Origin: Lichenostomus cassidix
Lineage: Eukaryota; Chordata; Aves; Passeriformes; Meliphagidae
Length of the DNA stretch: 64,000 bases
Reading direction: 5' to 3'
Assembly (NCBI GenBank): GCA_008360975.2
Contig: CM039210.1
Location: forward strand, 6,512,293 to 6,576,292
Shown here: piece by piece, positions 4,910-63,999 of the stretch
How positions within the stretch are numbered: the stretch's first letter is position 1
How the letters are laid out: the number at the start of each line of letters is the position of its first letter
The notes under the pieces: model-generated
The model's database searches: none
Seen by the model: the letters and a program-made list of their open reading frames with translations, nothing else
Told to the model about the DNA's origin: nothing
Position numbers and translations under genes: made by a program

Positions 4910-7900
4910 TTTCAAAAGCCCTTTTGGGCAAAGACCTGTTGGAGCAATTACAAGCAACCAATATGTTTAAGAATGGGGAAATTACTCTGGAGGTAAATGA
5001 TTAACAGTATATAAAAATATTAAGCTTGATGTTAACAACCACAAAGGCTAAGAGAAAAATTAGTAAAGAAATTACAAATCAAGTAATCCATAGCATATGG
5101 GCAACAAGAGTACCTGAGAGAGCTAAGAAAACACCTCAATACAGATGAGGCTCAAGGAAAGGAAACAACCAGTCAGAGATTGCAAATCTGATTTTAACAC
5201 TCTCATTTTACCAGTTTGCAAGCCTAATGAGTCATATCAGGTGGTAGAAGATTTAAGGGCAGTAAACAAAATAACTGAGAACCTCTATCCTGTGGTATCA
5301 AACCCCTACACACTACTAACTGAGCTAACACCTGAACTAACCTGTTTAAGCTTACTGTTTTAGATTTGAAAGATGCCTTCCTTTACCTCCTTTTCCATGA
5401 AACCAGCCAGAAAATATTCGCATTCGAATGGGAAAATCCCAAAAGCAGACGCAAAACTGAGCTTACTTGGACAGTGTTGCTTCAAGGATTCAAGAACAGT
5501 CCCACCCTATTCGGGGACCAATTAGCAAAAGACCTGAAATCTTAGGAAGCCCCATCTGAAGAAGGGAAGCTATTGCAATACGTTGATGACATCCTAATAG
5601 CTACCCGGGCAGAAAAATCCTGTGTACTCTGGACAGTAAGTCTACTAAATTTTTTGGGGCTCCAAGGGTACAGGGTGTCCAAGAAAAAAGCTCAAGTAGT
5701 AAAACCAAAAGTAATCTATTTGGGCTATGAAATTAGTGTTGGACAGTGAACTCTGGGACAGAACCGGGAAGAGGCAATCTGCCAAACCCTGAGCTCCCAA
5801 ACTGTGAAAGAGTTACGGACTTTCCTGGGGATTTTCAATTATGGGGTACTTGTGAAACCTTTGTACAAGCTCATCACAAAAGAAAGCTGAGACCTTCAGT
5901 AGACAAAAGAGGCCACGAGAGCCTTCAAACAGCTGAACAATGCCCTGATGTCAGCTCCAGCTTTGGGTCTTCCAGACGTGAGTAAACGATTCTTTCTGTT
6001 TTCTCATGAGAAACAGGGGATTGCCCTGGGAATACTAGCACAAAATCTGGGCCCATATCAATGGGCAGTTGCTTACTTCTCTAAGCAACTGGACACAGCA
6101 GTCAAAGGGTGGGCCGGGTGCCTCAGGGCCATCGCAACAGTTGTGCCAAACATCCAAGAAGCACGCAAGTTTACCTTGGGCCAGAAAATGACTGTGCTAA
6201 TGTCCCATACATTGTCTGCAGTGCTGGAAGTGAAAGGCGGACACTGGCTTTCCCCACAGAGGTTCCTGAAATACCAAGACATCATGATGGAGCAGGACAA
6301 TGTGGCAATAGTGGTCACTAACATTGTCAACCCAGCTTCTTTCCTAAGTGGAAACAATGGGGAGCAGGTACACCACGACTGCCTGGAAACTATTGAAGCC
6401 ACATACTCCAGTTGTTCAGATCTGAAGGATACACCTTTGGATGATGCAGAGACCTGGTTTACCGATGGGAGCAGCTATATCATCAGTGGAAAGCGACATG
6501 CAGAGTATGCAGTCACCACCAGCAAAAAGGTAATAGAATCTAGACCCCTACCAATAAATACTTCTGCCCAGAAAGCTGAAATAATTGCTTTGACCCGTGC
6601 TTTGGAAATAGCAAAAGTAAAAAAGATAAACATTTATACAGACTCAAAGTATGCATTTGGAGTTGTACATGCACACGGAGCCATTTGAAAAGACAGGGGA
6701 CTGTTGAACTCACAAGGAAAAAACATCAAACATGCACAAGAGATAACCCAGCTGTTGGAAGCAGTCCAGCTACCCGAAAAAGTAGCAATCATGCACATCA
6801 AGGCACACCAGAAAGTGAGCTCAGAATTGGAAGAAGGAAATTATCTGGCGGACAGAGAGGCAAAAGAAGCAGCAAAAGGTGAGGTGACAACTGAAGGGGC
6901 TTTAATTCCAGATGGCCAAATCTCCCTAGAAGGCAAGCCAACCTATAACAAAGAGGACAAAAAACTAATCAAAGATCAGAATGGGTCATACAAGGAAGAG
7001 GGTTGGGCTATTACTGAACAGGGGAGGTTGGTCATTCCTTCTCATTTAGTGTGGGCACTAGTAAGAACAGAACACCAAAAGACACATTGGGGAATAGATG
7101 CCCTACACAAATATTTAATTGAAAGAATTATTGCCAGAAATTTATATGCTACCATCACACAGGTAACCCGACAGTGTGACCTTTGCCTCCAGACTAGCCC
7201 TAAAAATATCCCCAAACCATAATTGGGCCAAATTGGGAAAGGGAATGGGCCTGGACAGCAGTGGCAAATTGATTTTTCGGAACTCCCAAGAAAAGGGGGG
7301 TATCGGTACTTGTTGGTATTAACAGATATTTTTTCAGGATGGCCAGAAGCCTTTCCCACTAGAACTGTCAATGCTCGGGAGGTAACCAAGGTATTGTTAC
7401 AAGAAATAATACCACACTTCAGACTTCCAGCCACAATGTCCTCAGATAGAGGACCACATTTCATTTCAAAGGTGGTACAACAAGTTAGCCATCATTTAGG
7501 CATAGATTGGGAGATTCACACCCCATACCACCCACAGTCAAGTGGTCAGGTGGAGAAAATGAACCACCTAATCAAACAGCAAATTGTAAGATAGGGGCAA
7601 GAAGCCAATTTACCCTGGCCCCAATCTCTTCCACTTGCATTATTACGAATCCGAACTAAACCCAGAACTAAAGAAAAATTAAGTCCTTTTGAGATGCTCT
7701 ATGGGAGACCATACGGAGTACAGAAAGGGCTATCCACCCAAGCTGGGGAGGAAACACTGACCGCCTATATGGTGGCCTTGAGTAAGCAACTCAGGAAAAT
7801 TGAAAAGCATGTGGCTGGAACCCGGAGTCAGGGCCTAGACAGCCCAGTACACAACATTCAACCTGGAGATTATGTTTATGTTAAGTCTCTTACAGAGAAA

Positions 7901-8125
7901 ACTTTGGAGCCACAGTGGGAAGGACCATTTCAAGTACTCCTTACCACTTTCACTGCAATTAAAATCAAAGAACAGAGCGCCTGGATTCATCATACTCAAG
8001 TGAAGAAGTCTCCAGAGACCCCTTGGAAAGTGGCTTCTAATGATAATGAACTGAAATTGAAATTTACCCAGGTAAAATGGATGCAATTAGAAAAGCTACT
8101 CTCGTTGGTGTTCTCACAATTATAA
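4910..8125 (+). pseudogene. pol: pol remnant of ERV C (protease end, RT, RNase H, integrase)
   Basis: Pol copies the viral RNA and inserts the DNA. Near 4917 the LLGKDL segment is the end of a protease. RT is recognisable from 5145, with the YVDD catalytic box at 5579-5590, but it is cut by stops and frame changes. The frame at 5948-6688 carries the RT connection and an RNase H with the FTDGSS motif near 6455 and YTDSKYAFG near 6637. A stop (TGA) interrupts it at 6686. Integrase follows: the zinc-binding H-H-C-C region at about 7070-7195, the three catalytic acidic residues in [14 protein letters not shown] and SGQVEKMN, and a C-terminal domain at 7694-8125. Stops near 7220 and 7592 break it. 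The end of pol overlaps the start of env by about 50 bases, as in gammaretroviruses. Confidence 0.88.
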
Positions 8126-8957
8126 CCATACTTCAAGGAAAAGGAGGTACTTTCAACCAGGGCGATACTGAATGGCCTTGGTCACAAGCCCTCATAGGGC
8201 CTTCCAGCTTTCAGGGAAACTACCCTACAGACAGCCGTCCAGATTTGGCTATAATTGTAATGCATGGTGATGAAATTTACCACCCACCTGAATGGGCTTG
8301 GAATCGAGATGCGTGGGTCATGACCCTACCTGGTATCCTTAATAAAAAAATCCATGTGGGATGCAGGAAAATAGAACCTGGTTTTCTATATGAAAAAGCC
8401 TCTTCTATTACGGTTTTTGGCATTTTTCTGATTTCAATCTGGCATCCAAAATTCACTCTGGCATTTCAAAGGAACCATGTCCTACTGAGGACTGGGATTG
8501 TGTTAAACAAGGTGTGTTTTCCTTATGTTGTCGCCAGAAATTCGCTAGCAACAAGACTTCCGGTGACCCAAGCAATAATAATGTCAAAATTACCAAGTCA
8601 TGCAAGGAAGAGCAAAGTGACTGCTGGTTTAATCTTACTATGGTTCATCCTTTTTATGTAGTGTGCCAGTGGACATCTAAACCTACTCAACCAACACTAT
8701 TAGGTTTAATTCAGAAAATTAAAATGAATGTGGTAGCCAGACCAAAACAAGAGTCCTCCCAAATTAACACTCCTATTCCTCCTAAACTAACACTTCAACC
8801 AAAAATTTATGAAGTTGGCCCATATGTGATAAGAAACACAGGCCAACAGCAATTGTTGTTCAGCCCAGAATGGTCTCTTAAGCGTTCAGAATTACTGATG
8901 CAAATTAACATTTCTGAAATCCAACCAGCTTGCTCCTCACTTTTAGACATCTTTTGA
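8077..8957 (+). pseudogene. env: env surface subunit remnant of ERV C
   Basis: Env mediates receptor binding and fusion. The start at 8077 opens into a short hydrophobic leader, and the protein reads in one frame to about 8520, then in another to 8957 after a frameshift. Cysteine- and Asn-X-Ser/Thr-rich segments are typical of a surface subunit. The overlap with the end of pol supports the start. It could not make a full protein as it stands. Confidence 0.7.
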
Positions 8958-10419
8958 AGGCTGGACAACATGGTTACAGAGGCAAGGACTCTTCAGGACC
9001 AGAACATGGAGAGATTTAACTGGAGTGTTAGGAACAGGATTGGGTGTTTTAAATGAGATTGATTCAGAGATACTAATGAATAAATTGGCCACCACAACCG
9101 GTGACCTAACAAGACTAAAACAACCTTTACAATCTTCTTTACTAGCGTTAGGAAATGGTCAGTGGCAAATTTCAAAGGTACTTCCAGATCTTGCAAAAGC
9201 TAACAATCAGGATCATAAATTAATAATAGATGCACTTGGAGCAGTTCAAAATAATGTGTCCCTTGCTCTTAGTTGCATACAAGCACAATTATGCATGCAA
9301 TCAGCAGCTTCTTTAATTATAAGGAAAGGAAATGAAGGTGTTTTCCATATTGAAATACGAAAAGCTGTTTGGGATAATGCTACTGAACTGGAAAAGAAAC
9401 TCCAATCTTGGTGGACTTTAGTAAACTTCACCTATGATCCAATTACTAACACAGCTACAGCCTTTGTACTTACTATACGCAATGCCACAATTTATGTAAT
9501 ACATCCCATTGTTCCTTTAGGATTAAACCACAATGGAGCAGTGCTTTACCCTTCTAAACACAGAGCATGGGCCCGGATGGTTGACAAGAAATGGCAAACT
9601 GTAAATTTAGAATCATGCATTACACGAGAACAACAAGGGTTTATCTGTGAGAGTAACACAGTTAATGCCAAAGATATATGCTTAGATGTTGAGCAAAGCA
9701 TTTGCCACTTTGAAGTTCACCCGGATACTAGTCAGAAAACAGTACTTGTATATCTTGGTCAGGGTTGTGTTTGCTTAAGAACAATATGTGTTTTCATAGA
9801 AATAGATAATGACAATGTTACTTTGGATGTTAGGAATCATTCTAATTTTTGTATTTGTAATTTTGTGAAGATCATTGGGTGTGACTTTTTGTATTTGGCA
9901 CCAGTTGTATCTCATCAATTGATAAAATCCAATTACACAATGTATCATGAATTATCATCAATACCTGTTGGGATGAACCTTACGCTGGTAAGACAATTGG
10001 TAGAGCACCAAGACTTAATTAACATCCTAAAAGGAATTCAAAAAAGTGAAAAGAAAATTTTAATAACCATTCACCATGATACAGAGGAAATAAGCAGAGT
10101 CTTGCAAAGAGCCAGACAGGATGCGGATCACCACTGGTGGAATGTGCTTTTTGGATGGTCACCTACTGCAACTGGCATCTTTAATACATTATGTCACCCC
10201 ATAATTGTTTTACTAATTTTGGTAGGTATTAGTCTTGTGTTATCTGTTTTGCTATTTGTTTGGAATTGTAGGATGTTAAAGAGGCTATCCATTTTAACTA
10301 CCTTATCAAATGTACATGGTAAGGTATTGAGAGATACTTATCGCAGAAGCTTGCTAGAAAAAATCCATGTTCTAGTAAAAGAATTTACTAATTTCATAGA
10401 AAAGGGGGGACTGATTTAG
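8958..10419 (+). pseudogene. env: env transmembrane subunit of ERV C with a long open frame
   Basis: A single open frame of 464 codons runs from 9025 to 10,419 in a different frame from the preceding surface-subunit segment. It begins with a Gly-rich hydrophobic stretch that could be a fusion peptide. It then has coiled-coil-like sequence, many cysteines and N-glycosylation sites, a hydrophobic anchor at about residues 390-415, and a cytoplasmic tail of roughly 45 residues. I do not see the CX6CC motif of ordinary gamma-type subunits, so this is another Env type. The polypurine tract and 3' LTR follow at once, which fixes its position as the end of env. Confidence 0.7.
10400..10411 (+). promoter_or_regulatory. 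polypurine tract of ERV C
   Basis: AAAAGGGGGGAC lies directly before the LTR start TGATTTAGGG. It is the plus-strand primer site of reverse transcription. Confidence 0.75.
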
Positions 10420-38829: not shown

Positions 38830-38833
38830 TTAT

Positions 38834-39322
38834 TGTTGCCCGAACCGAGGAAACACAAAACAACCGAAGTTATTTTATGCGGTGCTTTATTGAGGGCCCT
38901 GGGGACCTGAGGACTAATGTCCAAAGTCAGAGCCCCAAACCTGCTACAAAAATCACTGAGTATATATATGTTTTCTTTCCAAATTGCTTCATCTTAACGA
39001 ATTTGATTTCTAGACACATCTACCTGATTTATGATTACATTGTGACTTTGTTTTTCGTTAACTGAACATTCTTTATCATCATTAATCTACTACACCCTAT
39101 TAGATAAGTCGCACACTCCACTTAGCAGATTACTTAAATAAACAAACTGTTCTATAGCTACATTCCTTAGACAAGTCTTTCTCCCCTCATCAGTATGCTC
39201 TATTGATCCTTTTGATCGCTACTGGCAACTTCGCTACACAACAGTGTTTACACTCAGGCCTACTGATCCCTCCAAGCCTTAGCATGACTACTACTAAAGT
39301 TTTTATTCATGGTTTTGCAACA
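38834..39322 (-). repeat. 3' LTR of ERV N (489 bp)
   Basis: In minus-strand sense it starts TGTTGCAAAACC and ends TTCGGGCAACA, with the 6-bp inverted ends TGTTGC/GCAACA. AATAAA is at 38,886-38,891. The TATATATACTCAG stretch near 38,960 is the likely TATA box. Over the shared 371 bp I find one difference from the 5' LTR, a G/A change at a CpG. Confidence 0.93.
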
Positions 39323-39375: not shown

Positions 39376-41955
39376 TCAAAGTCTTTCTTCTCTATTTGCT
39401 GGAGGAGGTGTGGAAGACGTTGCATTCCTGGTCATTGCATTGATCAGCCTTCGGGTATGTAGGCGCTCCCTTCCAATGGTTCCTAAAATACATTTATAAA
39501 CTCCAAAAATAATTAGAATCAAAATCAAAAACATTATCGCATACTGAATCACCGATGATATCCATCCAGACACCTGGAGTCCTAAAGAGCTAAACACTTC
39601 TCCAATCCAATTATGTTCTGCTTCCCTTTCGAGATCTTTTGTTTTGTCTTCTATTAGTTCTAATTGTGAAATGTCCTTTTCCACATCAATAGTTACATTT
39701 GGGATATGGATGCAACAATGATCAATTTTCTGGCTCAAATATCCACACACTCCATGTTCCTTCAGTAAGAGCATGTCAAGAGCCATTCTATTTTGTAATG
39801 TCATTCTTGTGGTAGCCTGTAACTGAATATTGAAATCTTTAAATCCTTTCTTAGTGGCTGCTGCCAATCTTTCAGTCTGCCCCATTAGTTTATAGAGCAT
39901 ATCCCTGTTCCGATATGAAGCTACAGGTGCAAACAAGGATTCCAAAGCCCACCCGAATTTAACTCCGCTGGTTGGCTCATGCCATTCGTTTTCATCATCC
40001 AAGTCTCGTTTAGTCCTAGCTGATTGTCGAGTCAAATTAGACTGTTTCCAAAACGGACATAAGGTTGGAATTCCTAAAGTAATTTGTGTGACAGGCCCAT
40101 CTATTGGCATATGGGTGGTCCACTTTCCATGCCCCATAACCCAAACTAGGTTTCCTGGACTTCTGATAGTAGTAGATTTACAACTGATGTTTCTCTTCCC
40201 ATTTTTATCTCCTTGAATTTGGTCTGTAATTGTATGGTTGTATCCTCGACATTCACATCCCCATTTTAGCAAGACTCTTACTGGTACGAGCCCTATTTTA
40301 TCTTGTGGTGTGTCACATGTGATTACTTGGGTACAATTCCAAATGTCTTTTTGGTCCCTCTTCTCCCGTCTGGTAGTCTGGAGGTTCATTACCTCAGTGT
40401 AAGTCTGGTTTTTACTTCCTGTCCATTGTATGCACCAATTAACTTGTCCTAAGTAGCTATATGTTTCTAAAAGGCTTGGTCCCCAAATTGTTCCCCATTC
40501 GTCTTCTAAAGACTGAGTCTGGGTAACATTTTGACAGACTTCTTCCTCTCTAATCTTTTGTTCCTTGAGAGTCACTTTGTTACACGGTTCTGAAACAGGC
40601 CCTGAAACAACACACTTATTACCTCTTGATGTTGTCAGCCATGCATAATATCCTGGCATCTGCCTGCATTGGTGTTCAGTAACCCTCCGGACCAACATAC
40701 AACCCTCTTTCCAGTCATAGTACTCATTAGGAACCAATCTACAGCTCCAAGTTACGTTTACATATGCCTCAGGCAAATCAGTGACGGGAACTATTCCCCA
40801 TGGAATTGGTTCTCCCGCTGCTCGAGGCAGAGGTAAACAAGCAGTGATTTTAGAAACATTCTGCATTTCTCCAAAGTCTCGAATTAAACCTACAATTAAG
40901 TTTTCTTGTTCTGGGTTATGGTGAAAAACCCAGGTTTTATTTCCAATTTCAACATCTCTAATTCTTCTTTTATTTATTCGTGCCCTAGTAAGGGATACCA
41001 AAGTCACAGCGTGTGTCCACCATGCATCTTGGGCAATCCAACACCAATATGTCCCTTCATCCTCTGGTTGAACATCCTGTATCACTAAAGTTAACATGCC
41101 TCCTGATCGCTTCTCTAATTGGTATTTCCCCCCTTCCTGGACATTTCCTTTCTTAAACCACCATCCTAACTCAGAGAAAACAATTCCACGCTCTGGTTGG
41201 CAAACTAAAACTACAGAAGTACCACGGACCGCCTGGTAAATTCCATGGGTAGGTCTTAACCCATCCATTAGATGACTTTTTCCTTGTACTTCTCTCTTCC
41301 CGTACCCCATCATAGAACCACAGCTTATCACACAGAGATATAATCCCTCATTTTTCCCTACACGTGCCTGAGTATCATTTAACCATCCAATTCCACTATC
41401 GCTTCCTGCCTGCAGGTCACTCTTTCCTTCCGGCCTTTCCCACATTATCTGTCTAGCTAATTTCCACCAAGTAACCGTGAACATGCTGCTACATTCATGT
41501 TGGGCTGTGAATGAGCAATTTATTTTTGAGGGCGGACCATCCCACATGTCAATTGATGCTTGGTAAGGTGAGACTTTTATTGCCGAGTTGCTTTGCCATG
41601 TCATAACCCCTAGTGCAATTCGTTTATAATCAAAACTCCACCTAATTTTTACCAGACATATATATATCCCAGCACTTTCCATGCTAACGTTGGTAAGCTG
41701 TAATGTGGTATTGCCTTTTTGTGTGTCCTTATCCCAAAATGTACTATTGATAACATTAGTGAGTGTTTGCTCTTTGCTCCAATATGTACTTATCTCATCG
41801 ACTCCAGCTCCCTGGTCATCAGTGATTTCACAAGTCAAGTTTACAGTCATTCCTTCCATTGCTCCGATTACAGGATCTGAAACAGTGACAAGTACATGTT
41901 CATCAACGGGTAATATTTTTAGCATAACCAGAAATACAGCAATCACAATTTTCAT
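39376..41955 (-). CDS. env: intact Env with three N-terminal immunoglobulin-like domains
   Basis: Uninterrupted, 859 residues. Residues 1-20 look like a signal peptide. Three V-like Ig domains follow: about 22-120 (Cys42, Trp59, Cys100 in AGIYIC), 128-225 (Cys147, Trp163, Cys208 in EGLYLC) and 235-325 (Cys252, Trp265, Cys305 in DEGTYWC). Residues 340-645 are a Cys- and glycan-site-rich surface subunit. A furin-type RTKR site is at 647-650. The transmembrane subunit has a conserved helix before Cys737, a Cys747-Cys748 pair, a membrane anchor at about 801-823 and a 36-residue tail. I chose the start at 41,955 because it opens the signal peptide; the frame is open upstream to 42,222, with an in-frame ATG at 42,108, but that part overlaps integrase sequence. 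Normal Env proteins are about 500-680 residues, so the Ig region accounts for the excess. The role of the Ig domains is unknown. Confidence 0.92.
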   Translation of the reverse strand: MKIVIAVFLVMLKILPVDEHVLVTVSDPVIGAMEGMTVNLTCEITDDQGAGVDEISTYWSKEQTLTNVINSTFWDKDTQKGNTTLQLTNVSMESAGIYICLVKIRWSFDYKRIALGVMTWQSNSAIKVSPYQASIDMWDGPPSKINCSFTAQHECSSMFTVTWWKLARQIMWERPEGKSDLQAGSDSGIGWLNDTQARVGKNEGLYLCVISCGSMMGYGKREVQGKSHLMDGLRPTHGIYQAVRGTSVVLVCQPERGIVFSELGWWFKKGNVQEGGKYQLEKRSGGMLTLVIQDVQPEDEGTYWCWIAQDAWWTHAVTLVSLTRARINKRRIRDVEIGNKTWVFHHNPEQENLIVGLIRDFGEMQNVSKITACLPLPRAAGEPIPWGIVPVTDLPEAYVNVTWSCRLVPNEYYDWKEGCMLVRRVTEHQCRQMPGYYAWLTTSRGNKCVVSGPVSEPCNKVTLKEQKIREEEVCQNVTQTQSLEDEWGTIWGPSLLETYSYLGQVNWCIQWTGSKNQTYTEVMNLQTTRREKRDQKDIWNCTQVITCDTPQDKIGLVPVRVLLKWGCECRGYNHTITDQIQGDKNGKRNISCKSTTIRSPGNLVWVMGHGKWTTHMPIDGPVTQITLGIPTLCPFWKQSNLTRQSARTKRDLDDENEWHEPTSGVKFGWALESLFAPVASYRNRDMLYKLMGQTERLAAATKKGFKDFNIQLQATTRMTLQNRMALDMLLLKEHGVCGYLSQKIDHCCIHIPNVTIDVEKDISQLELIEDKTKDLEREAEHNWIGEVFSSLGLQVSGWISSVIQYAIMFLILILIIFGVYKCILGTIGRERLHTRRLINAMTRNATSSTPPPANREERL

Positions 41956-42154
41956 TTTGCTCGTAAAATCAATCGCGTGGGGGACACGACTTGGGATTCC
42001 CACTGAGTTGGCATCTTCTTGACTCACGTGTAATGTATCCAGGAGTCGATTCCGGCCACTTTGATTGCTGTGAATGTTGTTAGTATCACCTGATACGGGC
42101 CGTCCCATGATTCTCTCAGTGGGTCTGTGAACCAGTTCTTCACGTATACTTGGT
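41956..42154 (-). pseudogene. pol: integrase C-terminal end of ERV N
   Basis: In a frame different from env, the minus strand reads [28 protein letters not shown] and DSWIHYT, the end of a gammaretroviral integrase, like 36,360-36,500 and 7,870-8,000. A TGA interrupts it near 42,026. At 42,154 it joins U3 sequence directly, so everything from the R region to the integrase core is gone. Confidence 0.85.
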
Positions 42155-42525
42155 ATCACTGAGTATATATATGTTTTCTTTCCAAATTGCTTCATCTTAA
42201 CGAATTTGATTTCTAGACACATCTACCTGATTTATGATTACATTGTGACTTTGTTTTTCGTTAACTGAACATTCTTTATCATCATTAATCTACTACACCC
42301 TATTAGATAAGTCACACACTCCACTTAGCAGATTACTTAAATAAACAAACTGTTCTATAGCTACATTCCTTAGACAAGTCTTTCTCCCCTCATCAGTATG
42401 CTCTATTGATCCTTTTGATCGCTACTGGCAACTTCGCTACACAACAGTGTTTACACTCAGGCCTACTGATCCCTCCAAGCCTTAGCATGACTACTACTAA
42501 AGTTTTTATTCATGGTTTTGCAACA
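42155..42525 (-). repeat. 5' LTR of ERV N, U3 only (371 bp)
   Basis: Same as 38,952-39,322 with one difference. It stops at the TATATATACTCAGTGAT stretch; R, U5, primer-binding site and leader are deleted. The TATA element is kept at about 42,164-42,172, roughly 210 bases before the env start. Confidence 0.93.
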
Positions 42526-42529
42526 TTAT

Positions 42530-56541: not shown

Positions 56542-56898
56542 AGGGGCAATTCTTAGGGGACCCCTCAACGGGAGGCGCCCCGTTGTCACAACGGCCCGGA
56601 GAGGGTACCCCTTTGAAACCCTTACCGACGAACCTAAATTTCGGGTAGTGAGCGAAGGAACCCCTTAATCTTTCTGCACAAAGTCCGGACGAAGACGCGA
56701 GACGCGTGAGTATGTGTTAATTTATAACACAGGGAATCTGTTCGGTCGGGGTGGGGATCCTAGAGTGCCGTGTCTGAGACGTCCGGTGCGGACGACCTGA
56801 GTGTGGACTCCTTTGTAGTGCGTTTCCCACATCCCGCGAGGGCCTGGGCCATGAACAGGAGGACGTGAGAGTGTGTGTGTGTGAAGGCACTCTGGAAG
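56542..56898 (+). other. ERV A copy 2 leader with candidate splice donor
   Basis: G+C-rich leader before gag. GCGTGAGTATG at about 56,704 fits a 5' splice site (GT at 56,706) for a spliced env mRNA. The packaging signal is expected here but cannot be read from sequence alone. Confidence 0.55.
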
Positions 56899-58353
56899 AT
56901 GGGACAGAGGAAGAGCAAGCCATCTGGACCCATGGGGGGGGAGCCCCAAGTAAGACTCCCGGATATACCACCAGATAGTCCTCTGGGGTTAATGATCAAA
57001 TATTGGGATGATGATCCACGTACACGAGGGAAAATTAAGGCAAAAATGATTAACTATTGCATGACAGTCTGGGGAGGAAAACAAATTAGAGGAGACCCTC
57101 TTTACTGGCCGGTTTTTGGATCCTCTGAGGATTGGATTTGCCAAGCTCTAAATTTGTATGTAAACTCTAAAAAGCCTTTTAGCCAGGAAGAGAGTGATTA
57201 TGCAGCCCTGTGGATAACTAGTGGAAATCGGACAAGCCTGTTTGTTCTCAGTAAAGGAAAGAGAAAACAGGCGGAGGAAATACCTCCACCCTATGTTCCC
57301 CCGTCCCCCATGCCAGATGCTGCAGTGCCCCCTCCAGCACAACCTCTGCCGGTTCCAAATGCACCACAGATGGAGGGGGATGACACTCCACCACCCGAGA
57401 GACGGGTTACTAGAAGCCAGGCAAGGAACCAGTTATACCCTCTCAGAGAAGTAGGCATGGGTATGGTTAATCAACCAGGGGGAGGACAGGCGCCCGGTAT
57501 CGGATACATAGCCGTCCCTCTGAACTCAGCCGATGTCAGGGAATTTAAAAAGGAAATGGGGCATTTATTGGAAGATCCACTGGGGGTAGCAGAAAGAGTA
57601 GATCAATTCTTAGGACCAAATATTTATACTTGGGATGAGATACAGTCAATATTGAGCATCTTATTCATAGCAGAAGAGAGGAGAATGATAAGGGCAGCTG
57701 GGATGAGGATTTGGGAAAACAACCACCCACAAGGCCCCATTGGAGATGTTAAATGGCCCCTTCAGAGGCCTAATTGGAACAATCAAAATGAAAACGATAG
57801 AGCACACATGCAAGATTTAAGGACTATCATAGTCCAAGGCATTAAGGAGGCTGTCCCCCGAGGACAAAATATGACTAAGGCCTTTAATGAGCTGCAAAAG
57901 AAAGATGAAGACCCTACTGAATGGTTGGAAAGGCTCCGGAGAAATTTACAACTTTACTCCGGCATAGATCCTGATTCCCCGGTAGGACAAACATTGCTAA
58001 AAACCCAATTTGTAGCAAAGGCATGGGTGGATATTAGGAAAAAGTTAGAAAAATTAGAAGACTGGCAAAACCGGGGGTTGGATGAGTTATTGAGAGAAGC
58101 ACAGAAAGTGTATGTCAGAAGGGATGAGGAAAGTCATAAGAAACAAGTTAGAATGATGGTAGCAGCTGTAAGAGGGGGACAAGAGAGAACCACCACTAGA
58201 TCACCGCAAGAGAAATGGCCCCCGAAACCTCCAAGAAATACGGAAGGGCAAAAGAGGAATGAGATAGTGTGCTTTTACTGTGGGAAAAAGGGACACATGA
58301 AGAGGGAATGCCGCCAACGATTGGCAGACATAAAAATGTTCAAAGAGGACTAG
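56899..58353 (+). CDS. gag: gag of ERV A copy 2, intact (484 residues)
   Basis: Gag assembles the particle. I chose the ATG at 56,899 because it gives Met-Gly followed by basic residues, a myristoylation and membrane-binding signal; the frame is open a little upstream. Matrix covers about residues 1-120, then a Pro-rich linker with the PPPY late-domain motif at 129-132, which recruits host WW-domain ubiquitin ligases. Capsid is in the second half. One CCHC zinc knuckle (Cys458, Cys461, His466, Cys471) binds RNA. The frame closes with TAG at 58,351, in frame with pol. Length and order are those of a gammaretrovirus. No lesion seen. Confidence 0.93.
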   Translation: MGQRKSKPSGPMGGEPQVRLPDIPPDSPLGLMIKYWDDDPRTRGKIKAKMINYCMTVWGGKQIRGDPLYWPVFGSSEDWICQALNLYVNSKKPFSQEESDYAALWITSGNRTSLFVLSKGKRKQAEEIPPPYVPPSPMPDAAVPPPAQPLPVPNAPQMEGDDTPPPERRVTRSQARNQLYPLREVGMGMVNQPGGGQAPGIGYIAVPLNSADVREFKKEMGHLLEDPLGVAERVDQFLGPNIYTWDEIQSILSILFIAEERRMIRAAGMRIWENNHPQGPIGDVKWPLQRPNWNNQNENDRAHMQDLRTIIVQGIKEAVPRGQNMTKAFNELQKKDEDPTEWLERLRRNLQLYSGIDPDSPVGQTLLKTQFVAKAWVDIRKKLEKLEDWQNRGLDELLREAQKVYVRRDEESHKKQVRMMVAAVRGGQERTTTRSPQEKWPPKPPRNTEGQKRNEIVCFYCGKKGHMKRECRQRLADIKMFKED

Positions 58354-58403
58354 GGGTGTCAGGGGCTCTATTTGCTGGGGTCAAAAAAAGCATCGGAGCC
58401 CCT
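58351..58403 (+). promoter_or_regulatory. gag-pol readthrough region with 8-bp stem
   Basis: TAG at 58,351 is followed after seven bases by AGGGGCTC (58,361-58,368), which pairs perfectly with GAGCCCCT at 58,396-58,403. Gag and pol are in the same frame across the TAG. Gammaretroviruses make Gag-Pol by stop-codon readthrough that depends on a pseudoknot in this place; the same arrangement is inferred here. The second pseudoknot stem was not worked out. Confidence 0.7.
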
Positions 58404-61400
58404 AGTAAAATTACAGGTAGGACCCCAGCGACAAGAAATTGAATTTTTAGTGGACTCCGGAGCAGAGCGCTCCACTGTGCATAAACTGCCTCAGGGGTGT
58501 AAAGTATCCAAAGACACTGTACAAGTAATAGGAGCAAAAGGGGAACCATTCGGAGTCCCTATAATTAAAGATGTGCTAATTGAAACGAACTCTAAATTGG
58601 GTATAGGTAGTTTCTTATTGGTACCGGAGGCAGAATGCAATCTACTAGGGAGAGATTTAATGGTAGAATTGGGAATAGGATTGGAAATAAATAAACAAGG
58701 ATTAAATATTAAAATATACTCCCTTAGCACAAAGGATGAGCAACAGATAGACCCAAAGGTTTGGTACACCCCGGACTCAGTGGGGAAGCTAGACATCAAA
58801 CCTTTCTCAATAACCTTAACAAATCCACATATCCCAGTAAAAATAAAACAGTATCCGTTACCTGAGGAAGGGCAAAGAGGACTGAAACCCGAAGTCGAAA
58901 GGCTAATAAAACAAGGGATTTTAGAGCCCTGTATGTCCCCGTTTAACACTCCAATTTTGCCAGTAAAAAAACCAGATGATAGTTACCGATTAGTGCATGA
59001 CTTGAGAGAAATAAATAAAAGAACCGTTAAACGGTTCCCTGTGGTAGCCAACCCTCATACTATCCTCAGCCAACTAGGCCCACATGATTGCTGGTACAGT
59101 GTGATAGACTTAAAAGATGCATTTTGGGCTTGCCCCTTAGATAAAAACTGTCGCGACTATTTTGCATTTGAGTGGGAAGATCCTGACAGTCATATAAAAC
59201 AACAGCTACGATGGACTGTCCTTCCCCAGGGATTCACAGAATCCCCCAATCTATTTGGACAAGCCCTGAGTCAAATACTACAAAACTACCAAGTGGGACC
59301 AGAAGTTAAACTCATACAGTATGTAGATGATCTAATAATAGCTGGGAAACAAGAGGAATTAGTGAGGGAAGAAAGTATAAAGATGTTAAATTTTTTGGGG
59401 AAACAGGGACTAAAAGTCTCTAAATCAAAACTGCAATTTACCGAACAAGAGGTAAAATACTTAGGACACCGACTAACTAATGGGACTAAAAAGCTTGATC
59501 CCAGCAGGGTACAAGGGATTCTGTCAATGCCACCTCCCCAGACCAAGCGACAGATTTGACAATTGCTAGGTTTATTTGGATAGTGCAGACAATGGATTGA
59601 AAATTACAGTAAAAAAGTAAAATTCCTATATGAAAAATTAACACGGGATGGATTACTTAAATGGACCTCAAGATGAGGAAAACCTTCAAAATCTAAAAAG
59701 GGAGTTAACAAGTGCCCCCATACTAAGCTTACCAGACTTAAAGAAACCTTTTTATTTATTTGTAAATATTGAAGAAGGAACTGCATTTGGGGTGCTAGCA
59801 CAAGAATGGGCAGGAAGTAAAAAGCCGATAGCCTACCTTTCAAAGTTATTAGACCCAATTAGTAGAGGCTGGCCCACTTGTCTACAGGCAGTAGCGGCAG
59901 CTGCTGTAATGGTAGAGGAAGCATTAAAAATAACATTTGGGGTTGAGTTAAAAGTTATGTCCCCACATGACATTCGGGGCATATTGACACAAAAGGCTGA
60001 AAAATGGATCACTGATGCCCGATTGCTGAAATATGAAGGAATTCTGGTATCATCCCCCAAGCTTACTTTAGAAGTGGCATCCATACAGAACCCAGCACAA
60101 TTTCTGTATGGGAACCCTGAGAGTAACATCTTATGGCACAATTGCCTACAAACCATAGAGGAACAAACTAAGATCAGGCCAGACTTAGAAGAGGAAGAAC
60201 TGGGGGAGGGTATGAAATTATTTGTAGATGGTTCCTCACGGGTGCTTGAGGGGAAGCGCAAATCGGGATATGCAATAGTGGATGGAAATAAATTAGAAGT
60301 ACTCCAATCTGGCCCACTAAGCCCAAGTTGGTCGGCTCAGGCATGTGAGCTGTATGCAGTTCTAAGGGCTTTACAAATTATAGGAAAAGGAGAGGGAACT
60401 ATTTACACAGACTCCAAATACGCATTCGGGGTAATACACACATTTGGAAAAATCTGGGAAGAACGGGGCCTTATTACATCACAAGGAAAGAGCCTAGTCC
60501 ACAAGAGACTCATAAAAGAAATTTTAAAAGCTATTAGAGTACCCTCCAAACTTGAAGTGGTCCATGTCAGGGGACATCAAAAGGGATTGGGAACAGTGGT
60601 ACGGGGAAACAACCTGGCTGATGAAGAAGCTAAACGAGCAGCATTACTACCCCTCTGGGTAAGGAATCCTAGGGAAAGTTGTTCTACCTGCAGGTATGAC
60701 TTGGAAGGATTCCCTTGTTCTGCTTGCTGGAAGGACTAGGGAGTGGATGGTTTAGTTTGCTCCTGTTACAGTCCTGATGGGCAATCAAATTCGGACAAAG
60801 ATTTTTGTTATATTCACGGGGAAAACAAACCATACATAGATTACCCCTGTACAACCTACTTGCTAAGCTTTACAACAATAGAGCAAGAAAAATTGAGGCA
60901 AGTGGGTATAAAACCAAACTCAGAAGGTAAATGGGTTCTGGGAGACGGAAGAGAGATTTTACCTAAGCCTATGGCCTTAAGGGTTCTGAAGAGACTCCAT
61001 GAAAAGACCCATTGGGGAACACAGGCCCTGGTGGATCAGTTTGCCAATAAATATATGTGCATGGGTATTTACAACTTAGCTAAACAGATAACCATGGGAT
61101 GTGTTACTTACCAAAAAGTAAACAGACATCAATTAAGAAAAAGAATCCCTGGGGGCAGAGAATTAGCACATAGACCTTTTTCCCACATCCAGATTGACTT
61201 TACTGAATTGCCTTTAGTGGGAAGGTATAAATATTTACTGGTTATAGTAGACCACCACACTCACTTTGTGGAAGCCTTCCCAACGACAAGAGCCACAGCA
61301 CAAACAGTTGCAAAAACTTTATTAGAACAAATAATGCCAAGATATGGCCTTATAGAAGTAATAGATTCAGATTGGGGACCACACTTTATATCTAAGATTA

Positions 61401-62004
61401 CAAGAGCTGTATCTGAGGCGCTCGGAATTGCCTGGGAATACCACACCCCTTGGCACCCTCAAAGTTCGGGCAAGGTAGAAAGAATAAATGGAGAAATAAA
61501 AAGCAACTAACTAAATTAATGCTAGAAACAAAAATGAGTTGGATTAAATGTCTACCATTAGCATTATTAAACATTAGAACTCAACCCCGTACAGATATAG
61601 GGATTTCTTCATATGAAATGTTATATGGAATGCCATTTAATTTAGAAATGCCTGAAGACCACCCGGCCATATCAGATTTCCATCTACAATCCTATATAAC
61701 CAGCCTAGAAAACCGAAGGGAAAAACTCCGTAAGAAGGGACTGGTGGTTCAACGACCACCCCTGTGGCTACCTATTCACTCATTCCACCCTGGAGATGAA
61801 GTTTTAATAAAATCTTGGAAAGAAACATCTTTAACCCCTCAATGGGAGGGACCGTATGTCGTGTTGATTTCTACAGAATCATCGGTCCGGACAGCGGAGA
61901 GAGGCTGGACCCACGCTAGCCAAGTGAAGAAGTTCAACAGAGACCCCACCTGGAGAGTGGTGGAACAACCACAGGACTTAAAAATTAGGCTTAAGAAATC
62001 CTAG
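58354..62004 (+). pseudogene. pol: pol of ERV A copy 2 (protease, RT, RNase H, integrase), broken
   Basis: Protease has FLVDSGAERS near 58,444. RT has the LPVKKPDDSYRLVHDLREIN block near 58,960 and YVDD at 59,320-59,331. Lesions: TGA at 59,557, TAG at 59,581, a frameshift near 59,645, TAG at 60,737 and a frameshift near 61,490. RNase H (59,648-60,739 frame) shows FVDGSS near 60,220, CELYAV near 60,345 and YTDSKYAFG near 60,404. Integrase has HEKTH near 60,999, but the second Cys of the zinc site is Tyr (CVTY near 61,100). The triad is in QIDFTE, DSDWGPHF and GKVERING. The C-terminal domain ends at 62,004. It cannot make a full Pol. Confidence 0.92.
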
Positions 62005-62047
62005 CCTGCCTATGCATGAAATCCTATAACTGTATACTTGAGAAACC

Positions 62048-62455
62048 ATGATTTATTGCTTGGAGAATATGTTAATAATTATATTGTTAAGTGCAACATC
62101 CATAATTGTAATTGCTACCCTTTTGCTTGCTTTATATGTAAGGTGTGCCAGGAACGATAGTGGGCCCATTGCAAGGGGGGGGAACCTCCTAAGGGAATTT
62201 GCCGAATGTGTTAGTGATGGGACATATATGCATTTGGGATACACCAAGAACTGTATTATTACCACTCAAATGAACCCGCACCAATGGTGGCAAACATCAC
62301 CGGCGGGGAGTGCAGAAAAGCCCTGGTCTATCTGCCTTGTGGTGACCTCATGGTTAAACATGTCAACCGGGACAGCTACAAGAAAAGATCCTTTGTCCCT
62401 GAGACCCCTGAAAAAAAAAAAATCCTTGCTGCCGAGAAGAATTCCATCCCCGTGA
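62048..62455 (+). CDS. small membrane-protein ORF between pol and env of ERV A
   Basis: 135 codons from 62,048. Residues about 8-30 form one strongly hydrophobic segment followed by Arg-Cys-Ala-Arg, so the product would be a small membrane protein with a mostly cytoplasmic or luminal soluble part. The last third is basic and Lys-rich. It overlaps the env-frame sequence from 62,284 in another frame. Simple gammaretroviruses have no gene here. It may be an accessory gene, the start of an earlier env leader, or chance; I do not recognise a family. Confidence 0.45.
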   Translation: MIYCLENMLIIILLSATSIIVIATLLLALYVRCARNDSGPIARGGNLLREFAECVSDGTYMHLGYTKNCIITTQMNPHQWWQTSPAGSAEKPWSICLVVTSWLNMSTGTATRKDPLSLRPLKKKKSLLPRRIPSP

Positions 62456-63999
62456 CTCGCTGCAACCGAGCCGACGGGCGAGGCAGAGGGATATATACAG
62501 CCAGTGGGGTGAACATAGCTGGGACTATGAAAAGATCTGGTATGAGCTGCCCCAAATCGAGAAAGAACCCGAAACAGGCACCACTGTATAAGGCTAAAAA
62601 GGGGACCAAGGCAGGGTCTAAACAAACTAAAAGAATTCAAAAAGCACTGGGACCCCCATCTTCCTACCACACCTATATCTTGCTTTTAAGCCTAACATTT
62701 ACATGTACTACCTCTGATGTACACCCTCACCAACCTTTTCGCTGGACGTTAAGACAATGGGACAGCCAAACCCTAATCCAAACCCGACTCGGACCGGGGC
62801 AAATCAGTTTTAATGCATCCCTGTGTGTTTTAGCTCCTATAGAACCTTGTATGCTTGAAGGTAAAGGTTGGTATTTTTGCCCTAGTGCAAACCCCGGAAA
62901 GGGATATTGCAACCACCCAAATTCTTATTACTGTGCTTATTGGGGATGCGAAACCATAGCTTACCCCTGGCTCCCAGACGGAGACAAGCATATTAAAGTT
63001 GGGTGGGGACCTTACGGTTGTAATCCACCTGACTATAGTAGCCAGATTGGAAGGAGGGGAGCAGGGCCCAAAGTAACCTGTAAATGGTTATACATAAATA
63101 TAACACAACCCCAAGATCCTACGTGGCTACTAGGCAAGACCTGGGGTATAAGGTACTGGGAATCAGGAACCGACAGAGGTGGTCTTATCTATATAAAAAA
63201 GGAACCTCTCCCCAATGACCCCGAGCCAGTGGGACCAAACCGGGTCATAATAGACATGATAAATACTGAAGCAGATGGATTAGGCATAGACCATGAGGAA
63301 AGTACCACCATATCCAAAACCGAAATACCCCCAACCCCCTCGGGAGAAATAACTGATGAATTATGGAGACTTATGGTAGCCAGCTATAAGGTCCTAAACA
63401 AAACACACCCAGAATTAACAGACCACTGCTGGCTATGCTATAACGCCAGACCACCCTTCTATGAAGCTATGGGGACAATTGAAAAAGCTAGAAGGGTAAT
63501 GGGAGCAATCCTGCTCAATGTCTGTGGAAATCTGGCAAAAGAACAAAATCTGGTATCACATTGGCGCAGGTATCAGGAGAAGGAAGGTGCATAGGAAAAA
63601 TCCCATCTTCTAAAATGCACCTATGTAAAGTAACAATGCAAGCCCAAAAACCAAAAGAGCCTGCAGATTGGCTAATACCAGCTAAAAATGCTAAATGGGT
63701 ACGTGCAAGTGTAGGGGTAACTCCCTGTATTCCCTTAAAGGAGTTTAATCAATCAGACTATTGCATACAAGTAGTAATAGTGCCAAGAATCACCTACCAC
63801 CCAGGTGATTACATATATGACCACCATTCGGTCCCAAGGCACCACCTTGTAAAAAGAGAGCCTATTACAGCTATAACTATCGCAACCCTATTAGCATTAG
63901 GCACAGCAGGAGCAGGCACAGGTATAGCCTCCCTTGTAAAACAAGACACAGAATTTGCCAATTTGCGAGAAACCGTAGATGAAGATGTAGCCAAAATTG
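62284..63999 (+). pseudogene. env: env of ERV A copy 2, frameshifted, cut by window edge
   Basis: The surface subunit is open from 62,284 to 63,594. The likely start is ATG 62,527, about 45 codons before a signal-like hydrophobic run (YILLLSLTFTC, near 62,672). The protein is Cys-rich with N-glycosylation sites, and CWLC at 63,427-63,438 is the disulphide-exchange motif of gamma-type Env. A one-base frameshift near 63,570 moves the rest to another frame, which continues through a basic VKR site at about 63,849-63,857, a Gly/Ala-rich fusion peptide at about 63,870-63,940 and the start of the transmembrane subunit. The frameshift should prevent a whole Env. The end is outside the window. Confidence 0.85.

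What the first reader, a model, noticed from the sequence alone, without database searches (positions are those of the whole stretch)
39376..41955. Retroviral Env carrying three tandem immunoglobulin-like domains
The open frame joins a signal peptide and three V-like Ig domains (each with Cys...Trp...[D/N/A]xGxYxC) to an ordinary Env backbone with an RTKR site, a fusion subunit and a membrane anchor. The third domain ends DEGTYWC, a form common in CD300/pIgR-type receptors. I know of no described retroviral Env of this build. It could be capture of a host immune-receptor gene, giving a decoy, a new receptor-binding head or a restriction factor.
Basis: partly seen in the sequence, partly recalled or inferred. 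Interest (0 to 1): 0.93.

Follow-up and report, generated by a model that had tools for sequence, protein, structure and literature searches.

The report
Retroviral spike with captured immunoglobulin head
A young family of bird endogenous retroviruses carries a spike protein with a three-domain immunoglobulin-like module fitted in front of an otherwise complete spike, and the best viral match found for that module is a bird poxvirus protein.

Summary
On the minus strand, 39376-41955 encodes an 859-aa Env: signal peptide, three Ig-like domains (residues 19-326), SU backbone with an RTKR site, TM and anchor. Ig1 and Ig3 pass Pfam cut-offs; Ig2 rests on hallmark residues and a weak profile match. 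The window copy is an env-only deletion derivative of a gammaretrovirus-like provirus. The Ig3 part occurs at 43 places in this genome at 96-100% identity; nine LTR pairs differ by 0-1.04%. Shared variants suggest constraint on the Ig part as on the rest of Env. Relatives in the same genome (TM 54-71%, integrase mostly 53-67% identical) have the SU backbone directly behind a signal peptide, without Ig domains: the module is added to the backbone, not put in its place. Ig1 and Ig3 have no close host gene in this genome. The best viral match for the module is the avipoxvirus Ig-like protein SWPV1-183 (CNPV081 family; Foldseek E 1.8e-19, 33% identity over 320 columns, but TM-score 0.26). Best reading: a captured Ig module, probably of common descent with the avipoxvirus protein, displayed as an added binding or immune-modulating head on a retroviral spike. 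Donor, direction of transfer and function are not shown.

The parts
42526..42529 (-). 5' target-site duplication, 4 bp
   Evidence: flanks read; same four bases as 38830-38833
42155..42525 (-). 5' LTR fragment: the first 371 nt of the LTR, with a TATA-like stretch at about 42164-42171; rest of the LTR deleted
   Evidence: 370 of 371 identical to the 3' LTR
41956..42154 (-). leader before env, which in other copies follows pol sequence and here follows the LTR fragment
   Evidence: 97-100% identical where it is found in other copies (split in L009 and L010, not found in L029); junction read
39376..41955 (-). Ig-Env coding sequence, 859 aa plus stop
41902..41955 (-). signal peptide, residues 1-18 (boundary inferred)
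   Evidence: read by eye
41596..41901 (-). Ig1, residues 19-120
   Evidence: Pfam ig 3.9e-10; hhalign probability 95.6; model pLDDT by ten-residue block 57-80, lower at the end
41260..41595 (-). Ig2, residues 121-232; Ig-like by Cys..Trp..GxYxC, no Pfam match above cut-off
   Evidence: hhalign probability 16.7, 0 of 100 shuffles; model pLDDT mostly under 50
40978..41259 (-). Ig3, residues 233-326, with DEGTYWC
40006..40977 (-). SU backbone, residues 327-650, ending in RTKR
   Evidence: 34-35% identical over 311 columns to the Ig-less Envs L070 and L071
39379..40005 (-). TM subunit, residues 651-859, with LQNRMALD, CX9CC and anchor
38834..39322 (-). 3' LTR, 489 nt
   Evidence: 40 matches at 98-100% among the 40 scored of 134 candidates
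38830..38833 (-). 3' target-site duplication

Best explanation
A gammaretrovirus-like lineage of birds gained a three-domain Ig module between the signal peptide and the mature SU of an already complete Env. Shown by calls: the module and its place, its absence in related Envs, the young multi-copy proviral family, moderate evidence of constraint on the Ig part, and a Foldseek match along its length to an avipoxvirus Ig-like protein. Inferred: the Ig trio sits as an outermost head on the Env and binds a host surface or immune protein, either as an added attachment head or to blunt immune recognition, while the kept SU backbone and TM do receptor triggering and fusion. The window copy is a deleted copy in which the LTR promoter region stands directly before env, so it could be transcribed without splicing; that too is inferred.
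For: Ig domains. Related Env frames of 582 and 597 aa without the module. In 9 of 15 fetched relatives both an integrase match and the start of the SU match are seen, 114-264 nt apart, too short for about 924 nt of Ig module. 43 places with Ig3 at 96-100%, next match 28% (all 83 candidates scored). 9 LTR pairs 0-1.04% apart. 24 of 30 fetched env copies full length without gaps, 14 of these 24 without a stop. Variants shared by two or more copies in the Ig part: 13 silent, 12 replacing; P 0.0006, 0.005 and 0.011 for transition weights 1, 4 and 8. Avipoxvirus match; annotation.
Against: No binding partner is known or predicted. Ig2 is weak by sequence and badly modelled. The pox match rests on Foldseek against one protein whose letters I could not fetch; its TM-score is 0.26 and rmsd 20.6, and 106 viral proteins match at E <= 0.001, so much of the list is the common Ig fold. 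Eight copies share one frame break behind the Ig part, so an intact Env was not needed for all spread, or these copies were multiplied later. Shared variants also reflect subfamily history and 61 of 68 are transitions; counting all variants, the Ig part has 26 silent and 47 replacing, ratio 0.48, so the constraint test is moderate. Closeness of the SU backbone to the relatives is only 27-39% by piece.
Confidence: 0.7

Rival explanations
1. Residues 19-326 are an ordinary gammaretroviral receptor-binding domain whose core merely resembles an Ig fold.
For: MLV-type receptor-binding domains have an Ig-like core (recalled).
Against: Two of the three domains pass Pfam Ig cut-offs. The relatives L070 and L071 align over Env residues 349-639 by tblastn and have no match to the Ig part, and none of the 8 relative frames scanned matches an Ig family up to E 1.
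Confidence: 0.03
2. Direct virus-to-virus transfer: the module moved between an avipoxvirus (CNPV081 family) and this retrovirus, in either direction.
For: First viral match with E 1.8e-19 against 6e-8 for the next; first again, and the only match with E <= 0.001 (1e-4, 19% over 368 columns), with a model made without an alignment. No close host gene for Ig1 or Ig3 in this genome. Reticuloendotheliosis virus sequences are reported inside fowlpox virus genomes (PMC4229897, passage).
Against: Both viruses may have taken the same bird gene independently; 33% identity cannot order the events; only one host genome was searched; no tree could be made; overall structural superposition is poor (TM-score 0.26).
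Confidence: 0.3
3. The Ig-Env, or the window copy in particular, is a host-domesticated restriction factor or decoy.
For: The window copy keeps an open Env frame directly behind the LTR promoter region. The eight frame-broken copies would make an Ig-only secreted product (inferred).
Against: Young, multi-copy and proviral; one difference in 371 LTR positions in the window copy leaves little time for selection on that copy.
Confidence: 0.1
4. Loss rather than gain: the ancestral Env had the Ig domains and the relatives lost them.
For: One family with and several without is formally compatible; the TM tree does not settle the order (no starred branch).
Against: In the nine relatives with both ends seen, TM identity 37-67%, there is no room for the module; unless Ig-Env branches off before all of them, more than one loss is needed.
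Confidence: 0.07

Closest known systems
CrocERV31 with captured nectin3 in alligators (PMC4299795, passages seen)
   Same: An endogenous retrovirus lineage carrying three Ig-like domains of host type
   Different: There nectin3 replaces env; here the Ig trio is fused in front of an Env that keeps SU and TM
Avipoxvirus Ig-like protein SWPV1-183 / CNPV081 (table passage in PMC5390406)
   Same: 332-333 aa; Foldseek aligns SWPV1-183 with the Env Ig module over 320 columns, 33% identical
   Different: A free-standing poxvirus gene of 332 aa, too short to hold SU and TM
Gamma-type Env (PMC9967133, passages seen)
   Same: SU/TM with basic cleavage site, LQNR motif, CXnCC, gammaretrovirus-like gag and pol in the same family
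   Different: Ig trio at the N-terminus, no CXXC, nine instead of the typical six residues in CXnCC
Related Envs in the same genome (L070, L071)
   Same: SU backbone 34-35%, TM 56-71% by stretch, integrase 64-66% in the main piece; same CX9CC, no CXXC
   Different: No Ig module; frames of 597 and 582 aa stop to stop
TgERV-F, a songbird alpharetrovirus with a gamma-type env (PMC10536682, passages seen)
   Same: An altered env history in songbird retroviruses
   Different: Whole env exchange; the paper's text has no word beginning immunoglobulin or Ig-like

Membership tests
Immunoglobulin superfamily (Ig1, Ig3) | Profile match above the curated cut-off | tested here: met
   Ig1 ig 40.3 bits (cut-off 21.8), Ig3 V-set 33.9 (cut-off 26)
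Immunoglobulin superfamily (Ig2) | Profile match or confident Ig fold | tested here: inconclusive
   Only Ig_VWDE at E 0.029 below cut-off; hhalign probability 16.7, 0 of 100 shuffles; model pLDDT mostly under 50; one PDB sequence match at E 1.1, an antibody chain
pIgR/CD300-type receptors | Closest kinship of Ig3 to this family | tested here: inconclusive
   Best PDB sequences are pIgR, 2.6e-8 whole, best stretch alone 0.09; own-genome hit exons read to me as mostly titin-like, two as CD300-like (labels recalled)
B7/PD-L1 family | Closest kinship of Ig1 | tested here: inconclusive
   CD276 7.8e-8 whole with no stretch significant alone; PD-L1 9.5e-7 with one stretch
Gamma-type Env | TM with LQNR motif and CXnCC, basic SU/TM site | tested here: met
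   n is 9, typically 6 by PMC9967133
Gamma-type Env | CXXC in SU | tested here: not met
   also absent in L070 and L071. Alpharetroviral Envs lack it too (PMC9967133). Hence I call it an Env related to the gamma type, not a plain member
Gamma-type Env | Pfam TLV_coat above cut-off | tested here: not met
   21.0 bits whole frame, 22.3 backbone alone, cut-off 22.5; relatives L070 28.2 and L071 23.5 pass
Gammaretrovirus-like provirus | Gag p30, MLV-type RT and integrase C-terminus in the same family of copies | tested here: met
   Gag_p30 5.9e-37, MLVIN_C 1e-15, RT matches include MMLV
Avipoxvirus CNPV081 Ig-like family | Similarity along the whole three-Ig stretch | tested here: met
   Foldseek only; TM-score 0.26 and 0.19
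Avipoxvirus CNPV081 Ig-like family | Common clade in a sequence tree | not testable with these tools
   pox sequence not fetched; two viral-contig scans found nothing
CrocERV31-type capture | Ig gene replaces env | tested here: not met
   SU and TM are present and align with Ig-less Envs

The most novel reading that the evidence does not exclude
A three-Ig gene of immune-evasion type passed directly between an avipoxvirus and a bird retrovirus and became a new outer head of the retroviral spike: a virus-to-virus exchange that built a chimeric Env. Copies with a shared frame break would release the head alone as a soluble factor.
Probability: 0.25. Interest if true: 0.95.

Novelty: new variant of a known kind. 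Interest (0 to 1): 0.85.

Why it matters
Retroviral envelopes are known to be swapped whole, and a host Ig gene is known to have replaced env. An Ig module fused in front of an Env that keeps SU and TM, present in dozens of young copies, is a build that I saw described in no title, abstract start or passage from the searches made (open-access library only, papers not read whole). It gives a concrete case of how retroviral spikes gain outer domains, and a testable link between avipoxviruses and retroviruses of birds.

Tried and rejected
The protein database search could not be made (database switched off), so relatives in other birds are untested. Two viral-contig scans found nothing. The single-sequence AlphaFold model was poor, mean pLDDT 37; with 19 bird Ig domains aligned, mean 63.4. 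Those rows lie almost all on Ig3, which explains why Ig3 is modelled best. PDB Foldseek rows span the three domains at rmsd of about 13-40, so domain packing is not modelled. MAFFT set the first residues of L070 and L071 against the end of Ig3; I take that as gap placement, since tblastn finds no Ig match there. The TM tree used the window and 8 of 15 relatives: 4 left out for stops, 3 gave no match at the cut-off; it left the place of Ig-Env open. Own-genome searches with Ig2 and with the SU backbone did not complete. That contig C32 is a W chromosome is a guess from its retroviral load, not tested. A paper on a Hawaiian honeycreeper that shares search words reports an Ig-like transcript and, apart from it, an RNase H/envelope transcript; the passages show no link between them.

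Limits: the 30 fetched loci are the best by Env match, so the share of open copies is biased upward. The TM search scored 150 of 898 candidates and I fetched 15 of its matches, so other relatives may differ. The age printed uses an assumed, recalled rate and is not relied on.

Full report
What is there. The window stretch 39376-41955 encodes, on the minus strand, an open frame of 859 codons from its ATG (948 stop to stop). It has a signal peptide, three Ig-like domains at residues 19-120, 121-232 and 233-326, an SU backbone with an RTKR site at 647-650, and a TM subunit with LQNRMALD, CX9CC and a hydrophobic anchor. Pfam finds Ig families and, below its cut-off, TLV_coat. Ig1 and Ig3 pass cut-offs alone; Ig2 has only a sub-threshold match. 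A profile of 16 bird Ig domains matches Ig1, Ig2 and Ig3 with probability 95.6, 16.7 and 98.5; the SU backbone as a control gives 0.2. In 100 shuffles each, none reached the real score, but for Ig2 the best shuffle had 21.2 against 22.4. Of those bird domains 14 were found by Ig3 and 2 by Ig1, so these two scores are partly circular; the Pfam result is not. The backbone matches, weakly, solved TM parts of filovirus GP2, ERV S71, syncytins and MLV (E 0.001-0.01).

The window copy. It is bounded by a full 3' LTR (489 nt) and by the first 371 nt of a 5' LTR, 370 of 371 identical, with a 4-bp target-site duplication. Gag and pol are missing: the LTR fragment is joined directly to the leader before env. 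Of 30 fetched loci only this one shows U3 next to the leader. A TATA-like stretch lies close before the junction, so transcription could start directly before env (inferred).

The family. LTR coordinates place complete proviruses at about 9.28 kb. Pieces upstream of env in other copies hold Gag p30, protease, MLV-type RT, RNase H and integrase. Env searched in the genome gave 54 matches, with 53 of 905 candidates scored. Ig3 alone gave 43 places at 96-100% identity, all 83 candidates scored; 32 of the 43 lie on contig C32, 24.1 Mb long. Nine LTR pairs differ by 0-1.04%. Of 30 fetched loci, 24 have full-length gapless env and 14 of these 24 no stop; these were the best-matching loci, so the share is biased upward. 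Variants found in two or more copies are 39 silent and 29 replacing over Env, and 13 and 12 in the Ig part; against a neutral expectation the Ig part gives P 0.0006, 0.005 and 0.011 for transition weights 1, 4 and 8. 61 of the 68 shared variants are transitions, so the true weight may be higher and P somewhat larger. Over all variants the Ig part has 26 silent and 47 replacing, ratio 0.48, like the whole Env at 0.45. So the Ig part seems to have been kept under selection much like the rest while the family spread. Eight copies share one frame break just behind the Ig part; these would make a secreted Ig-only product, if anything; a ninth examined copy has a different break.

Where the Ig part came from. 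The TM subunit searched in the same genome gave, beside the family itself, relatives from 69% down to about 30% identity (150 of 898 candidates scored). I fetched 15. None matches Ig1, Ig2 or Ig3 at E 0.001; 11 of 15 match the SU backbone. The two with whole Env frames (597 and 582 aa stop to stop) begin with a signal-peptide-like stretch, and by tblastn their SU aligns with Env residues 349-639. In nine relatives both an integrase match and the start of the SU match are seen, 114-264 nt apart. In the six relatives L070, L071, L073, L074, L079 and L080 the best integrase piece is 53-67% identical. The most economical reading is that the module was added to a complete Env in this lineage; the TM tree (window and 8 of 15 relatives) does not resolve the branching. 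Host genes: beyond the family, Ig3 finds 26 matches of 27-41% local identity with E 0.0014 and worse, and Ig1 two at E 0.33 and 0.35. Some hit exons read to me as titin-like, CD300-like or PD-L1-like (labels recalled). The genome searches with Ig2 and SU did not complete.

The avipoxvirus match. An AlphaFold model of residues 19-345 with 19 aligned bird domains has mean pLDDT 63.4, Ig3 mostly 91-98, Ig2 low. Against predicted viral structures the best match is SWPV1-183 of shearwaterpox virus, 332 aa, E 1.8e-19, 33% identity over 320 columns; the next has 6e-8. Its TM-score is only 0.26 at rmsd 20.6, as expected where the arrangement of domains is not modelled, and 106 proteins in that list reach E 0.001, so a shared Ig fold alone explains much of the list; what sets SWPV1-183 apart is the E-value and identity. 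With the poor model made without an alignment it is again first and the only match with E <= 0.001 (1e-4, 19% over 368 columns). The genome paper lists SWPV1-183 as a CNPV081 Ig-like domain protein homologue, 54% identical, 332 against 333 aa (PMC5390406, table passage). I could not fetch the pox sequence, so no sequence tree exists.

How it most likely works. The comparison with relatives shows that the module is extra, so the backbone probably still does receptor triggering and fusion. The Ig trio is then an outer head that binds a host protein, for attachment or against immune recognition. The pox kinship leans slightly to the immune side, because poxvirus Ig-like proteins are generally seen as immune modulators (recalled). 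Nothing here tests binding.

Comparison with what is known. CrocERV31 in alligators carries nectin3 in place of env (PMC4299795, passages). Gamma-type Envs typically have CXXC in SU and CX6CC in TM (PMC9967133, passages); this Env and L070 and L071 have no CXXC and have CX9CC. Eight searches of the open-access library showed no title, abstract start or passage that describes a retroviral Env with an Ig module; I read listings and passages, not whole papers, and subscription papers were not searchable, so 'undescribed' is limited to that.

Verdict. It is a new variant of a known kind, with an unusual and testable link to avipoxviruses.

Noticed in passing
L031-L035 (pieces upstream of env in other copies): Gag p30 and protease-pol lie in one frame, open without a gag-pol stop in 2 of 5 pieces; the other three have stops or breaks. 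A single zinc knuckle was seen in L032. How Gag alone is made is unclear.
   Followed up: partly
window 56869-63594 (+): Another provirus with long gag, pol and env-like frames (read by eye).
   Followed up: no
window 5903-10419 (+): Pol- and env-like frames of a further, different endogenous retrovirus (read by eye).
   Followed up: no
copies on C4, C77 and C32: Eight copies share one frame break just behind the Ig part, which leaves signal peptide plus three Ig domains and a short tail: either spread with a broken Env helped in trans, or later duplication.
   Followed up: partly
L077, L076, L082: Three further env frames in the genome match Avian_gp85 and TLV_coat above cut-off: several Env types coexist.
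   Followed up: no
contig C32 of the own genome: A 24-Mb contig rich in young retroviral copies, possibly the W chromosome; not tested.
   Followed up: no
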